This document shows, one piece after another, positions 15,215-29,727 of a stretch of DNA of 32,581 nt (position 1 is its first letter; every line of letters begins with the position of its first letter). This DNA comes from a virus, in IMG/VR virus record IMGVR_UViG_3300006059_000007, positions 1 through 32,581 of that record, one strand, 5' to 3'. The notes under the pieces were generated by a model that had not been told where the DNA came from, did not search any database, and worked only from the letters and a program-made list of their open reading frames with translations. Made by a program: the position numbers and the translations under genes.

Positions 15215-17587
15215 TCACTTGCCTTTCAACGGCCTCCAATCATCGACAGTTTCCTTACTGGTGTCTCCATTCTCTATCCAGTCCTTGAACTGATCCATCA
15301 GCATCGGCACCATCGACCCGAACCCTTCCCACCCCGACGAATAGCAAGCCAAGTAGCCATCCTTTGCTTCCTTTGCGCTCAAGAATCCAACCATGCACTT
15401 GTGTTCGTCAAACTTTCCTCCCGACTTTAACTGGTTGATGACGAAGACAATCTCGCTCTCGGGATGAGGTCCAATGAATACGTCAATGTGGTCTCCGTCT
15501 GCTTCGCTTTCCGTCCTCTTGATGTATCCGTAATGGTGCGCCATCTTCACCGACCATTCTTTCCCGTCCTGCGTCTTGCCGGAACGAGTCACCCCCTTTG
15601 GAGTCTCAATCGTGATCGGCAACCCCTGTATCTGCACATGACCCTTCTTGTAGTTGCCAGCCTCTTTCTGGGCTTCGGTCGGTCTTCGTTCCACTTCTTC
15701 AGCTGCTCTTTCGACACCTGGCTCAGGCCCCATCGGACCGTAGGCCAAAACATCGCCTTCCTTGACGAATTGCATTCTTCCTGTAAGTCCCGCCGGATCC
15801 TGTGCCTGAACCCGATAACGCTCTTTCTCGCCTTCCTTGTAAAACGGCATAGACAACGTCGCATCCGGCAGGTTTCCTCCGTTCGGTCCCAAACTTCCAG
15901 GCAAGGGAGACTGCAACGCCGCCTGCGGCAGCAACGCCGCTTGATCCGCCTGATTCAGGACTTCGTCACCCTCTTGCGGGTCGCTCAATCCCGTTAACCC
16001 TCTCACTTCTTCCTCCTTGAACGACACCCCCATGCTGTAGGCCGCCTCCGCCGCCGCCATCTTCTTAGCTGCCTCCGGATCAGCCACGTTGAACGCCCAT
16101 CGCGCCGGGATGTCCGCCCACTCCGGGAACGTCGCCTCCTGCACCGTCTTTACCCAGTCCTGCGTGTAAGTGTCCGCCAGGTTCTCCGCATCGAACTTCG
16201 TAATCTGAAACTTCGTGTCGCGCTGGAAAGACGTGTCGTGCGTCCCTAGCCCCTTTGCGTCACTCCGGCTCGACCCAGCCTGCCCCACAACATACCGCTC
16301 GGCCTGCTCCTCGATCTCCCTCTTCAACGCCATTAGCGCTTCCGCTCCAGCGATCGGCGTCTCCAACCGATCCACCCCGCCTACGCCCTGTCCCGACTTC
16401 CCTTGATGCCACGGCACTAAGATATTCGTCTTCCGGATGTTCTGCTTCGCCAACAAGTTCACTTCGTCAAAGCTCTTCTTGTTGCCCGCCTCGAAATACC
16501 AGAGCGTCAGACCCATGCCCACCCGCTCGTAATACGTCACCACCCAATCGAGATACTCCGTCTTCAAATGCCAGAACCAATACAGGACGTCCCGCACTCC
16601 CACGCCGTGGATTGCCTCCGCCCTCTGCGGATCAAAGAACTCGCCAGCAATGCTGACGTGAGAATGGATGATGAACCGATCCCGCCAGTATGGATCGCGC
16701 AAGACAAGACCGTAACTGCCTCCGGTCGTCAGCGTAACCTCGCCAGGCTCTACCGGGTCTTGCGACCGCGGATCGAAGACTTCCGCTCCTTGATCCGCCA
16801 GTCTCCGCGCCATTGGCGAATAGACAAGGATGTACGGCGTCCCATCCCACTTGTGTCCGATCGAATCGCCGTGGACCGGCTGATGCTTCTTCACGACTTG
16901 ACAACGACGACGTTGGGTCCGGGAAGTGACAACGGCTGGCGCGCCGTTAGCAGCAACTGCTCCCACTCCACCAGCTCCTTGCCACGCTCCTTCGCCTTCT
17001 CCACCACCGAAACCCCCTTCATTTCCGCTTCCAGACAACTCAGATATTCCTTGAGCGTTCGGAACACCCGGCACGCTTTGCTTGAAGTTGACGTTAGGCA
17101 AGTCAAGTTCCTTCCACTCGTATTGCCGCTGCACTCCGTGGCGTCCGTACCAGATGGCATCTTCGGCTGCGTAGTGGTGACGCATGAGATAGGGAGTCGC
17201 CCGGAAGATCCGCATGAGTCCATCTTTCAACGCCTTCTGATAAGGGTCTTTCTCGTCATCGACCTCGATATGCCACTTCTGACTGGCAACCGCCAACTTC
17301 CGCTCCTGCATCAATGCCGCCAAGAACACGTCCCGCTCCATCGCCATCGCGTTCTCTCGGCTGTTCCTCCGCGCCTCGTCCCACTGGTAATGGAAGTACG
17401 TCTTCTGCGCCCCGGACAAGACGGACCCGAACTGGTAGACGTGCGGGATCGCTAGGCCGTCTCCCGCGGTCTCGTAACCTTGATCTGTATCACGATAGGG
17501 AAGGCCATCCGCCCCGAGGATACGCGGCTGCGCAAACCCCGGCGGAGGCCCGAAACCGTTCATCGGCTGTGGCTTGAAGATTGGCAT
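15215..17587 (-). CDS. Portal protein with C-terminal InPase-like domain
   Basis: 790 aa. Residues to about 540 look like a Mu gp29/DUF935-type portal. This shows in the helical segment with YYERVGMGLTLWYFEAG, the region with VVGQAGSSRSDAKGLGTHDTSFQRDTKFQITKFDAENLADTYTQDW, and the turn ARWAFNVADPEAAKKMAAAEAAYSMGVSFKEEEVRGLTGLSDPQEGDEV. A Pro/Gly-rich linker follows. From about residue 640 the sequence GNYKKGHVQIQGLPITIETPKGVTR...MAHHYGYIK...DGDHIDVFIGP...FDEHKCMVGF...GWEGFG matches the 'inorganic pyrophosphatase'-like domain of phage polyvalent proteins. Such fusions place an accessory enzyme on a structural protein. No convincing ribosome binding site is seen before ATG 17587. Confidence 0.8.
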   Translation of the reverse strand: MPIFKPQPMNGFGPPPGFAQPRILGADGLPYRDTDQGYETAGDGLAIPHVYQFGSVLSGAQKTYFHYQWDEARRNSRENAMAMERDVFLAALMQERKLAVASQKWHIEVDDEKDPYQKALKDGLMRIFRATPYLMRHHYAAEDAIWYGRHGVQRQYEWKELDLPNVNFKQSVPGVPNAQGISELSGSGNEGGFGGGEGEGAWQGAGGVGAVAANGAPAVVTSRTQRRRCQVVKKHQPVHGDSIGHKWDGTPYILVYSPMARRLADQGAEVFDPRSQDPVEPGEVTLTTGGSYGLVLRDPYWRDRFIIHSHVSIAGEFFDPQRAEAIHGVGVRDVLYWFWHLKTEYLDWVVTYYERVGMGLTLWYFEAGNKKSFDEVNLLAKQNIRKTNILVPWHQGKSGQGVGGVDRLETPIAGAEALMALKREIEEQAERYVVGQAGSSRSDAKGLGTHDTSFQRDTKFQITKFDAENLADTYTQDWVKTVQEATFPEWADIPARWAFNVADPEAAKKMAAAEAAYSMGVSFKEEEVRGLTGLSDPQEGDEVLNQADQAALLPQAALQSPLPGSLGPNGGNLPDATLSMPFYKEGEKERYRVQAQDPAGLTGRMQFVKEGDVLAYGPMGPEPGVERAAEEVERRPTEAQKEAGNYKKGHVQIQGLPITIETPKGVTRSGKTQDGKEWSVKMAHHYGYIKRTESEADGDHIDVFIGPHPESEIVFVINQLKSGGKFDEHKCMVGFLSAKEAKDGYLACYSSGWEGFGSMVPMLMDQFKDWIENGDTSKETVDDWRPLKGK

Positions 17588-21247: not shown

Positions 21248-21339
21248 TTCGACAAGCGTTCGACAAGCGTTCGACAAGCGTTCGACAAGCGTTCGACAAG
21301 CGTTCGACAAGCGTTCGACAAGCGTTCGACAAGCGTTCG
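21248..21339. repeat. Eight 11-bp iterons TTCGACAAGCG
   Basis: Eight exact tandem copies of TTCGACAAGCG at 21248-21335 plus a partial ninth (TTCG). The unit equals one helical turn, so all copies face the same side of the DNA. An inverted element CAAGCGTTC-GCT-GAACGCTTG (21330-21350) closes the array. Candidate binding region for a multimeric protein such as the small terminase, or replication iterons. Confidence 0.8.
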
Positions 21340-27540: not shown

Positions 27541-27568
27541 GGAAACCCAGCCTTTCATATGGTATTCT

Positions 27569-27624
27569 GCTTGAACGCTCAAGCTAGCCAAGATATAGTG
27601 AAGGTGCTGCTTGAACGCTCAAGC
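27569..27624 (-). promoter_or_regulatory. Pair of GCTTGAACGCTCAAGC operator-like sites
   Basis: The 16-bp sequence GCTTGAACGCTCAAGC (inverted arms GCTTGA/TCAAGC) occurs at 27569-27584 and 27609-27624, 40 bases apart, upstream of the small basic protein. Between them, on the minus strand, is a TTGAGC box followed by CTATATC, consistent with a promoter overlapped by the first site. Autoregulation is plausible. Confidence 0.6.
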
Positions 27625-27709
27625 CAATATACCAGAACGGATGCTCTATGTCTCCAAAGACTTTTTGCTGTGTCTACTTAGTTCTCGACAGCTACTCCAT
27701 AAGCATCCT

Positions 27710-27743
27710 AACCGCCAAGTGAGTAAAAACTCACCTGGCGGTT
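27710..27743. repeat. Hairpin bordering the downstream array
   Basis: 15-base arms AACCGCCAAGTGAGT and ACTCACCTGGCGGTT with one mismatch and AAAA loop, at the outer edge of the 27749-27938 array. No T run on either strand. A similar AGGTGAGT...ACTCACCT hairpin lies at 30856-30877. Confidence 0.55.
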
Positions 27744-27748
27744 AAAGA

Positions 27749-27938
27749 TCGCTCTCTCACGTTGAAGTTATCGATTGGCTTGGCTTCGCTCTAGTTGCTT
27801 GAAGTTCTCCATCACCCTGGCTTCGCTCGATGACATTGAAGTTTTCAAGAGCCTTGGCTTCGCTCTCGCGATTTGAAGTTTTCAAGAGCCTTGGCTTCGC
27901 TCGGCGTCAATGAAGTTTTCGGCGTAGTTGGCTAGCTC
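27749..27938 (-). repeat. TIGR-like array 1, downstream of tas-like gene
   Basis: Alternating short repeats. On the plus strand TGGCTTCGCTC, 8 variable bases, TGAAGTTNTC, 8 variable bases; unit exactly 37 bp. TGGCTTCGCTC occurs at 27781, 27818, 27855 and 27892; TGAAGTT at 27763, 27800, 27837, 27874 and 27911. Five spacers follow the first repeat (tctcacgt, tagttgct, gatgacat, tcgcgatt, ggcgtcaa). Five follow the second (gattggct, catcaccc, aagagcct twice, ggcgtagt). The ends carry partial repeats (tcgctc at 27749; TGGCTAGCTC at 27929-27938, which overlaps the stop codon of the tas-like gene). Strand of transcription not determined; minus is assumed from the gene. Confidence 0.85.
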
Positions 27939-29014
27939 AACAGGTCCCGCAGCCCCTTCAAGTCTTCCCTGCCCTTGAAGTCCTCCCAACCCGGCGGCTT
28001 CAAGTAGTCCTGGTGCCTCTCTCCAATGTGATCGCTGAAGCAGTACGGGACAGGAGCTGCCTTTCCATAGTAGTCCTCGTACATCGCCGTGTGCAGATGA
28101 GAGAGAAACAGCTTCACAGCCCAACGCCTCGCCCTGGCCAGCAAGTGAGCGTCAGGCAGCTCCCCCTTCTCATATGCCTTGCGGGCCTCCGTCTCCTTCC
28201 CCAACTTCTTGCGCTCAAGGACAGCCGCGGCCTGGTCTTTGAATTGCCCGCTTTCGCTCTTGGCGTCTTCCTGAGCCCGCCTCATGACATAATACTTGCC
28301 GTAGTAGTCGTTCTTGTGGTTCTGGTTCTTGATGAAGCAGTCCCCTAGCTTGTAGCAGAGGACGTGCATGAACTCGTTGTGCGGCCTCATACATATAGCC
28401 TTGGACAGCCGATCCGTTGTCCATGCAAGAGGCACACCGTCGTCTCTTTTCCCGAACAAGAATTCCTTCCGCCTGCCTAGCACACCAGGTTGTATTTCGG
28501 CTACCTTCTCCACATGCGCGACAAATTCCTCGTTAAACGGAGCCTTGACACCCATCCGGTTGCTTTCCTGACTGTAGATCCTCTTCGCGTCTTCCGCCGA
28601 ATACCACTTCTGCTTCGGATTGATGCCGCAGTACGAGTATAAGTTGCTCGCCGTTGGGGCACGCCGGATGTCGAGATGAGACAGGAATCCAGCCGACAGG
28701 ATCTCGCCGATCCCTGTGATCGACTGCATCCATGCTCCGACACGGTAAGACCCTGCAAAGATCCCCATCGAGGTCTTGATGTTCCGCTCAATGGTCCAGG
28801 TGTTGTTGGCTATCCATCGCAGCACGCCGGATGGCTCCAGGTTCTCGACCTGATCTACTTGGTTCGAGGTGATTGTCCTCAACTTCTGGACCTGGTAGTA
28901 CAAGCCCACGAGGTAGCGAGCTTCCTTCGTCTTGATCAGACGGGCAGCTAGCTTGAGGTCTTTGGACAGTTTCTGCAACGGCTCGATGGCGGCCTGTTCT
29001 TCCAGTTCAACCAT
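27932..29014 (-). CDS. tas: Tas-like Nop/IS110-domain protein of a TIGR-Tas system
   Basis: 360 aa; strong AAGGAGA 7 bases before ATG 29014. Residues 97-132 (QSITGIGEILSAGFLSHL..IRRAPTASNLYSYCGIN) are the helix-hairpin-helix part of the IS110 transposase C-terminal domain (Transposase_20), which is related to the Nop domain of box C/D RNP proteins. N-terminal helices (residues 1-95) and the later segment RRWAVKLFLSHLHTAMYEDYYGK (296-318) match phage 'transposase' proteins that lack a catalytic half. There is no DEDD RuvC N-terminus, no HNH pattern, and no terminal inverted repeats, so it is unlikely to be a transposase. The gene is flanked on both sides by arrays of alternating short repeats. 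Together this fits a nuclease-less Tas protein that binds guide RNAs from the arrays. Confidence 0.8.
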   Translation of the reverse strand: MVELEEQAAIEPLQKLSKDLKLAARLIKTKEARYLVGLYYQVQKLRTITSNQVDQVENLEPSGVLRWIANNTWTIERNIKTSMGIFAGSYRVGAWMQSITGIGEILSAGFLSHLDIRRAPTASNLYSYCGINPKQKWYSAEDAKRIYSQESNRMGVKAPFNEEFVAHVEKVAEIQPGVLGRRKEFLFGKRDDGVPLAWTTDRLSKAICMRPHNEFMHVLCYKLGDCFIKNQNHKNDYYGKYYVMRRAQEDAKSESGQFKDQAAAVLERKKLGKETEARKAYEKGELPDAHLLARARRWAVKLFLSHLHTAMYEDYYGKAAPVPYCFSDHIGERHQDYLKPPGWEDFKGREDLKGLRDLLS

Positions 29015-29040
29015 TGTTCTCTCCTTGGGTTAATGAAAAA

Positions 29041-29446
29041 CGCTCTGACACTTTGAAGTTGTCTGACATCGTGGCTTCGCTCGCTGGGTATGAAGTTTTC
29101 CCGTGCGGTGGCTTCGATCATTGACTGTGAAGTTTTCGGCTCCTATGGCTTCGCTCTACGGCCGTGAAGTTGTTGAGATCGGTGGCTTCGCTCGCAGGTT
29201 CTTGAAGTTGTCCGAGCCTATGGCTCCGCTCTTCTACTATGAAGTTTTTTAACTCGGTGGCTTCGCTCCGTTCCTGTGAAGTTTTCGCAGGAAATGGCTC
29301 CTCTCCAAAATCGTGAAGTTTTCTCGCTCTATGGCTTCGCTCTCGGCTCGTGAAATTTTCACAGCGTGTGGCTCTGCTCGTACCCTTTGAGGTAATCTTA
29401 TCGCATGGCTTCGCTCATAGGCTTTGAAGTTGTCAACGCCTTTGGC
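29041..29446 (-). repeat. TIGR-like array 2, upstream of tas-like gene
   Basis: Same repeats and phase as array 1. TGGCTTCGCTC-type repeats start at 29072, 29109, 29146, 29183, 29221, 29258, 29295, 29332, 29369 and 29406, with partial ones at the ends. TGAAGTT-type repeats start at 29054, 29091, 29128, 29165, 29203, 29240, 29277, 29314, 29351, 29388 and 29425. Period 37 except one 38-bp unit with a 9-base spacer (gcaggttct). Eleven spacers of each kind, all different. Several repeats are degenerate (TGGCTCCTCTC, TGGCTCTGCTC, TGGCTTCGATC, TGAAATT, TGAGGTA). The left end begins with aaaaaCGCTC and the right end stops at TGGC beside the stop codon of the next gene. Confidence 0.85.
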
Positions 29447-29448
29447 TA

Positions 29449-29727
29449 CTACTCCTCATAACTGAGGAACACTTTGATGGGACGCATGGCCCTCGGCACA
29501 TACCCTGCTTCTCTCGTCTCGTGGGCTTCGTGAATCCATCGCTCAGTCACCTTGCACATCGCACAATGCTCATTACACTTCCTCCTCACCTCGCTGACCT
29601 CTCGACACATGATGCACAGATGGTAGGGAAGGCACTTGGGGCAAAAGCCCTTACTGTTGTTTTGGCCAACCACCTTGCCGCAGTCTTTGCAGGACTTTAC
29701 CTGAGCCCTTTTACTAACCTGGCTCAT
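29449..29727 (-). CDS. Zinc-finger-like small protein
   Basis: 92 aa from ATG 29727, ATGA-coupled to the gene upstream. Cysteine pairs CKDCGK, FCPKCL, LCIMCRE and CNEHCAMCK give at least two zinc-binding sites (C..C-X13-C..C, then C..C-X10-C...C..C). The C-terminus has HEAHETREAGYVPRAMRP. Probably a small nucleic-acid or protein adaptor. It is the last gene before array 2 and its stop codon touches the final partial repeat. Confidence 0.65.
   Translation of the reverse strand: MSQVSKRAQVKSCKDCGKVVGQNNSKGFCPKCLPYHLCIMCREVSEVRRKCNEHCAMCKVTERWIHEAHETREAGYVPRAMRPIKVFLSYEE

What the first reader, a model, noticed from the sequence alone, without database searches (positions are those of the whole stretch)
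27749..29446. Phage-encoded TIGR-Tas-like system with arrays on both sides of a nuclease-less Tas protein
Seen: two arrays made of two alternating short motifs (TGGCTTCGCTC and TGAAGTTNTC), each followed by 8 variable bases, unit 37 bp, flanking one gene that carries an IS110/Nop-type helix-hairpin-helix domain but no RuvC or HNH. Known: the TIGR-Tas systems described in 2025 pair Nop-domain Tas proteins with arrays holding two short spacers per unit, processed to guides of about 36 nt. Inferred: this is such a system, with the arrays split around the gene, so the protein may act by binding alone, for example to block or regulate DNA rather than cut it. Repeats this short are missed by CRISPR finders.
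Basis: partly seen in the sequence, partly recalled or inferred. Interest (0 to 1): 0.95.

Follow-up and report, generated by a model that had tools for sequence, protein, structure and literature searches.

The report
Phage TIGR-TasA RNA-guided DNA-binding locus
This phage carries a cutter-less version of the RNA-guided TIGR-Tas system described in 2025, with guide arrays on both sides of its one protein gene; it is a divergent new member of a known kind, and its relatives show that the guides are renewed very fast, which suggests a weapon against changing targets rather than a fixed gene switch.

Summary
Observation and reading are both right; this is a TIGR-TasA locus. On the minus strand: 11 units (29447-29041), tasA (29014-27932, 360 aa), 5 units (27932-27750). 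Edge repeat GAGCGAAGCCA, loop repeat GANAACTTCA, 8-nt spacers, unit 37. The array score is 45-50 against a shuffled maximum of 27. The protein passes the cut-off of NCBIfam NF052498 (TIGR-Tas, 138 bits, cut-off 100); its AlphaFold model (pLDDT 93) matches the solved TasH and TasR complexes first. It has no DEDD, RuvC or HNH domain. At least 85 of 101 loci (100 fetched relatives plus the window) carry such arrays in gene sense, 11 on both sides, an arrangement already described. So: new member of a known kind, divergent (at most 40% identical over near-full length). Particular here: an 11-nt edge repeat and a ~65-aa insert at a site where 15 of 76 TasA proteins carry one. No target was found, in its own genome or elsewhere. 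In relatives, near-identical phages have largely different spacers; two 8,868-bp contigs differ only in 6 of 8 bases of one spacer. Most likely role: RNA-guided DNA binding without cutting, aimed at rival elements or host DNA. The role is inferred.

The parts
29041..29447 (-). Upstream TIGR array: 11 units of 37 nt (one of 38), edge GAGCGAAGCCA, loop GANAACTTCA, 8-nt spacers A and B; begins with a truncated edge (T)AGCCA, ends with GAGCG
   Evidence: score 45 vs shuffled maximum 27
27932..29014 (-). tasA: 360-aa Nop-domain protein without a nuclease domain
   Evidence: NCBIfam NF052498 138 bits, cut-off 100; PHROG_4285 1.2e-26; PDB 9MTY (TasR) and 21KL (TasH) by sequence; AlphaFold pLDDT 93.1; Foldseek ranks 1-9 TasH/TasR
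28607..28726 (-). Helix-hairpin-helix core of the Nop / IS110 Transposase_20 domain (residues 97-136)
   Evidence: Pfam PF02371 9.2e-6
28391..28603 (-). Insert of about 65 aa (residues ~138-208) replacing the 9-aa loop W.KGxKRPW of most TasA proteins
   Evidence: Alignment of 76 TasA; helical, pLDDT 94-97; homologous module in 12 of 15 carriers, not significant for the window's own copy
29019..29026 (-). Shine-Dalgarno-like AAGGAGAG just upstream of the tasA start codon, between the upstream array and the gene
   Evidence: read from sequence
27750..27934 (-). Downstream TIGR array: 5 units of 37 nt; its first, truncated edge TAGCCA contains the tasA stop codon TAG; units 2 and 3 share spacer A AGGCTCTT with different spacers B
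   Evidence: score 50
27709..27744 (-). Strong hairpin (16-nt arms, 94% complementary) directly after the downstream array; no T run after it
   Evidence: RNA fold of 27700-27756 -35.9 kcal/mol, z -9.4
29449..29727 (-). Preceding ORF (92 aa, Cys-rich), whose stop codon abuts the first truncated edge of the upstream array; not a conserved partner
   Evidence: no Pfam or PHROG hit; no conserved neighbour among relatives

Best explanation
A TIGR-TasA system of a tailed phage. The two arrays and tasA lie on one strand, very likely in one transcript. By analogy with purified Tas systems the array RNA is cut within the edge repeats into guide RNAs of about 37 nt, each with spacers A and B; a TasA dimer binds one guide and opens double-stranded DNA where one strand reads A followed by the reverse complement of B, each spacer pairing with a different strand. 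With no nuclease domain it should bind and bend DNA without cutting it, most likely to block genes or replication of rival mobile elements or of host loci. Shown here: anatomy, family membership, absence of known nuclease domains, array association across relatives, fast spacer renewal in relatives. Taken from Faure et al. 2025: processing, guide binding, targeting rule. Inferred: no cutting, and the antagonistic role. Identity about 0.97; binding without cutting about 0.85; aimed at antagonists rather than at the phage's own genes about 0.55.
For: NCBIfam TIGR_Tas_endo 3.8e-40, 138 bits over a cut-off of 100. Sequence hits to 9MTY (TasR) and 21KL (TasH). AlphaFold model, 76 sequences, pLDDT 93.1, pTM 0.89; Foldseek ranks 1-9 all TasH/TasR, then IS110-family recombinases. 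Arrays beyond chance with truncated edges at both ends, as the family requires. At least 85 of 101 homologous loci have arrays in gene sense, and the two repeats keep matching ends in nearly all of 51 distinct repeat pairs (CA/CA 43, CG/CG 3, never CA/CG). Antagonist reading: no self-target signal and fast spacer turnover in relatives.
Against: No target was found for any spacer, so the role is untested. Sister contigs of the window phage were not found, so turnover is shown in relatives only. A nuclease acting in trans cannot be excluded. The hairpin after the downstream array lacks a T run, so termination there is unclear. The window's ~65-aa insert is of unknown function and could add an activity.
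Confidence: 0.8

Rival explanations
1. A regulator of the phage's own genes: guides direct TasA to the phage's own promoters or operators to time its expression.
For: TasA has no nuclease, so binding its own DNA would be harmless; repression by DNA binding is plausible for a nuclease-less protein.
Against: No window unit has a self-target better than controls (best 2 mismatches once, the same as a control). 850 spacer pairs show no excess in 1.2 Mb of relatives' DNA, own contigs included. Spacers change among phages with nearly identical tas genes.
Confidence: 0.12
2. An aid to integration or recombination: RNA-guided DNA bending helps a phage integrase or recombinase find host sites.
For: Faure et al. 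2025 suggest it from the near-180-degree DNA bend; a few relatives lie next to ssb genes (5 groups).
Against: No integrase was found among the window proteins searched in Pfam and PHROGs; guides are many and change fast, unlike a fixed attachment site.
Confidence: 0.08
3. Remnant or variant of an IS110 bridge-RNA transposase.
For: Pfam and PHROG call it transposase; the HhH domain is shared with IS110.
Against: No DEDD domain; IS110 NCBIfam score 22 against a cut-off of 140, while TIGR-Tas scores 138 against 100; IS110-family structures rank after all Tas structures; arrays instead of one bridge RNA.
Confidence: 0.01
4. The repeats are not guide arrays but, for example, coding repeats or binding-site clusters that happen to flank the gene.
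For: The repeats are short, and no RNA data exist for this phage.
Against: Strict repeat-spacer-repeat periodicity, truncated edges, matched repeat ends, and the same arrangement at 85 or more homologous loci with unrelated neighbours.
Confidence: 0.02

Closest known systems
TIGR-TasA (solo Nop-domain Tas with dual-repeat array; Faure et al. 2025, PMC12045711)
   Same: Nop-domain protein without nuclease, array of two alternating short repeats with two spacers per unit, truncated edges at array ends, arrays upstream and downstream, phage setting
   Different: Unit 37 instead of 36 nt (11-nt edge repeat), 8-nt spacers, at most 40% identity over near-full length to any relative found, and a ~65-aa insert that 61 of 76 TasA proteins lack
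TIGR-TasH (PDB 21KL, 9W04)
   Same: Fold of the Nop part (Foldseek prob 1.00); 8-nt spacers, as the paper reports for SpTIGR of Salicola phage (16 nt in all)
   Different: No HNH domain
TIGR-TasR (PDB 9MTY)
   Same: Nop fold and C-terminal sequence motif
   Different: No RuvC domain; different repeat ends (TasR repeats start UG and end CCA, here GA and CA)
IS110-family bridge-RNA recombinases (IS621, ISCro4)
   Same: Shared HhH/Nop RNA-binding domain
   Different: No DEDD catalytic domain; an array rather than one bridge RNA

Membership tests
TIGR-Tas | Nop-domain Tas protein | tested here: met
   NCBIfam NF052498 138.2 bits, cut-off 100; PDB sequence and fold hits to TasR and TasH
TIGR-Tas | Array of two alternating 8-12 nt repeats with short spacers | tested here: met
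   Edge 11 nt, loop 10 nt, spacers 8 nt, 11 + 5 units; score 45-50 vs shuffled maximum 27
TIGR-Tas | Array next to the tas gene, upstream and/or downstream | tested here: met
   Both sides here; at least 85 of 101 loci including the window, 11 on both sides
[quoted passage not shown]
   TAGCCA ... GAGCG in both arrays
TIGR-Tas | Rho-independent terminator after the array | tested here: inconclusive
   Very stable hairpin at 27744-27709 (z -9.4) but no T run; TTTTT without a stem after the upstream array
TIGR-Tas | Box C/D-like ends of edge and loop repeats match each other and covary between loci | tested here: met
   GA...CA in both repeats here; across 51 repeat pairs CA/CA 43, CG/CG 3, GT/GT once, no CA/CG mixture; a few pairs are out of phase
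TIGR-Tas | Array processed to ~36-nt tigRNAs bound by the Tas protein | not testable with these tools
   Needs RNA sequencing
TIGR-Tas | Tandem-spacer recognition of both DNA strands | not testable with these tools
   No natural target found
TasA subtype | No RuvC or HNH domain | tested here: met
   Pfam shows only a Transposase_20 fragment above cut-off; the model begins directly with the coiled-coil helices
IS110 transposase | N-terminal DEDD catalytic domain and full-length IS110 profile match | tested here: not met
   Only residues 97-136 match in Pfam; IS110 NCBIfam 22 bits, cut-off 140
CRISPR-Cas | cas genes with one repeat of 25-36 nt | tested here: not met
   Two short repeats; PADLOC finds nothing for the effector

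The most novel reading that the evidence does not exclude
TIGR arrays of TasA phages renew spacers in place, one half-spacer or one unit at a time, without any adaptation gene nearby, by exchange between the short repeats. Evidence in relatives: two 8,868-bp contigs identical except for one spacer; phages with 98-99% identical tas genes sharing only a few units; half-spacers re-used with new partners 21 times against 0.25 expected, once in the window itself. If so, a nuclease-less, RNA-guided DNA-binding system evolves like a weapon, and the 'enigma' of how TIGR arrays expand becomes testable.
Probability: 0.4. Interest if true: 0.8.

Novelty: new member of a known kind. Interest (0 to 1): 0.48.

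Why it matters
The function of nuclease-less TasA, said to be the commonest Tas effector, is unknown, and so is how TIGR arrays gain spacers (Faure et al. 2025). This locus adds a divergent phage example with an inserted helical domain. The comparison done around it shows that spacers turn over much faster than the tas gene, in the array interior as well as at its start, with no adaptation gene beside them. That favours changing, antagonistic targets over self-regulation and names concrete phage pairs in which renewal can be studied.

Tried and rejected
Close relatives by single-sequence patterns: none in IMG/VR, phages or plasmids; a profile seeded with PDB alignment segments was needed. The window's own repeat sequence as a DNA pattern: only single chance-like matches. 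Self-targets and targets in relatives, with pairing-shuffled and orientation controls: no enrichment. Four guides of the Halomonas NO4 relative against about 150 genomes of its family: no hit for three; for the GC-rich fourth, 8 genomes, 6 of them with the same matched sequence, about what base composition predicts; the follow-up script stopped on an error and was not pursued. Conserved partner genes: none; ssb upstream in 5 groups only. Sister phages through the portal protein: none. Rfam: nothing. First AlphaFold job with 12 sequences gave pLDDT 76; repeated with 76 sequences. The insert matches no Pfam family above its cut-off.

Full report
1. What is in the window. The window is a 32,581-bp virus record; its predicted structural genes lie on the minus strand. 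Read on that strand, the locus runs: small Cys-rich ORF (29727-29449), upstream array (29447-29041), Shine-Dalgarno-like AAGGAGAG, tasA (29014-27932), downstream array (27932-27750), strong hairpin (27744-27709). The unit is edge GAGCGAAGCCA (11), spacer A (8), loop GANAACTTCA (10), spacer B (8), 37 nt in all; unit 7 of the upstream array has a 9-nt spacer B. Both arrays open with a truncated edge 'TAGCCA' that abuts or contains the stop codon of the preceding gene, and both close with 'GAGCG'. The column-periodicity score is 45 and 50, against a maximum of 27 in shuffled sequences.

2. The protein. Pfam sees only an IS110-type HhH fragment at residues 97-136; PHROG_4285 'transposase' covers residues 12-333 (1.2e-26). 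phmmer against the PDB finds TasR (9MTY) at 1.8e-5 and, weakly, TasH (21KL, 0.15). NCBIfam NF052498, the TIGR-Tas model, gives 138.2 bits over a curated cut-off of 100, while the IS110 model gives 22 against 140. That model's name says endonuclease, but this protein has no nuclease domain. With 76 sequences in the alignment AlphaFold reaches pLDDT 93.1 and pTM 0.89; Foldseek ranks 1-9 are all TasH or TasR complexes, followed by IS110-family recombinases. TM-scores are moderate (0.41-0.48 by query), so this is kinship of fold, not a close match.

3. Relatives. Profile searches gave 245 encoded relatives in IMG/VR (80 fetched) and 14 in genomes, from Acidobacteriota, Halomonas, Bacillota and a Methanosarcinales chromosome among others. 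Of 101 loci inspected (100 fetched plus the window), at least 85 have a periodic array within 1.5 kb of tas: 54 downstream, 20 upstream, 11 both. At least two of the 16 counted as 'none' (L057, L101) also have arrays but were lost to my overlap rule, so 85 is a lower bound. Arrays run in the sense of the gene, often starting inside its stop codon. Both repeats of a locus keep matching ends: CA/CA in 43 of 51 distinct pairs, CG/CG in 3, never CA/CG; a few pairs were extracted out of phase. That is the box C/D covariation Faure et al. describe.

4. What sets this locus apart. (a) The edge repeat is 11 nt and the unit 37 instead of 36. (b) The closest relative is 40% identical over near-full length. 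(c) TasA carries about 65 extra residues where 61 of 76 relatives have a 9-10 residue loop. Fifteen proteins have such an insert. Leave-one-out HMMs find the module homologous in 12 of the 15; the window's own copy scores 3.8 bits (best of 20 shuffles 0.4), which is not significant. Carriers are scattered over the tree: 13 changes against 13.9 for shuffled labels, at least 5 forced by well-supported branches, so the module looks exchanged between lineages. The bootstrap had not settled and the window sits on a long branch, so this is suggestive only. Its place in the RNA/DNA-binding half may make it a counterpart of the 'wedge loop' of TasR; I could not test that.

5. Targets. Under the rule of Faure et al. 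(each spacer pairs with a different strand, gap 0-2), which I worked out from their cut positions as A followed by the reverse complement of B, 850 unique pairs were searched in 1.2 Mb of relatives' DNA including own contigs: 3 exact and 80 one-mismatch hits, against 0-2 and 73-84 for pairings shuffled within loci. The window's own units do no better than controls in the window. Four guides of a Halomonas prophage relative gave nothing above chance in about 150 genomes of its family. So self-regulation gets no support, but no positive target is known.

6. Array dynamics in relatives. L091 and L096, from different metagenome records, are identical over 8,868 bp except for 6 of the 8 bases of one spacer B. 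L084 and L087 have 99.4% identical tas genes but share 2 of 13 and 16 units; L071 and L072 98.1% and 2 of 24 and 12; L015 and L016 93.8% and none of 14. L088 and L089 differ only by a duplicated unit. Over 19 pairs of close relatives about half of interior spacers are shared (359 of 708), half of the first two (19 of 38) and most of the last two (31 of 38), so change is not confined to one end. The same half-spacer occurs with a different partner within an array 21 times, against 0.25 expected under uniform composition (two of these are the same array in L077 and L081); the window's units D2 and D3 are such a case. These are metagenome assemblies, and repeats can be mis-assembled; the L091 spacer recurs in two further records (L093, L095), and the new spacer of L096 occurs nowhere else in it. 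Faure et al. call array emergence and expansion an enigma and do not discuss turnover in the main text.

7. Mechanism and verdict. Membership of TIGR-Tas, TasA subtype, is met on every testable feature except the terminator, which is inconclusive. Processing and two-strand binding are taken from the purified systems in PMC12045711. The nuclease-less protein, the lack of self-targets and the fast renewal of guides favour DNA binding aimed at changing targets such as rival elements or host loci; this last step is inference. The locus is a new, divergent member of a known kind. The spacer-renewal data from its relatives are the more interesting by-product.

Noticed in passing
L091:3931-12798 and L096:1-8868: Two phage contigs from different metagenomes are identical over 8,868 bp except for 6 of 8 bases of a single TIGR spacer B (AAGTAGAG to TGGACACG).
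   Followed up: yes
window 28391-28603; L026, L029, L040-L043, L045, L046, L060, L076, L078, L082, L102, L108: A ~60-95 aa insert at one site of TasA in 15 of 76 proteins, scattered on the tree as if exchanged between lineages; no Pfam family above cut-off.
   Followed up: partly
window 21248-21339: Perfect 11-bp tandem repeat TTCGACAAGCG, 8.4 copies, 100% identity; iteron-like or a short coding repeat.
   Followed up: no
window 15215-17587: Mu-type portal protein fused at its C terminus to a full inorganic pyrophosphatase (InPase, PF18823) domain, 1.7e-54.
   Followed up: no
window 27567-27624: Two exact copies, 40 bp apart, of CTGCTTGAACGCTCAAGC, which contains the palindrome GCTTGA-ACGC-TCAAGC, just beyond the downstream array.
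   Followed up: no
L028:6998-7702: In the Halomonas NO4 relative the TIGR array lies between an ssb gene and tasA; ssb-like genes lie upstream of tas in 5 groups.
   Followed up: partly
L018:5995-6957: TasA with a different, Cys/His-containing insert right after the HhH motif (not at the window's insert site), and several separate arrays downstream.
   Followed up: no
L039:8780-9340: TasA with a long TIGR array on a Methanosarcinales chromosome (MAG titled complete genome).
   Followed up: no
L014, L046, L055, L076, L090, L108: TasA homologues with no dual-repeat array of period 34-40 found nearby; they may use another array type or none.
   Followed up: no
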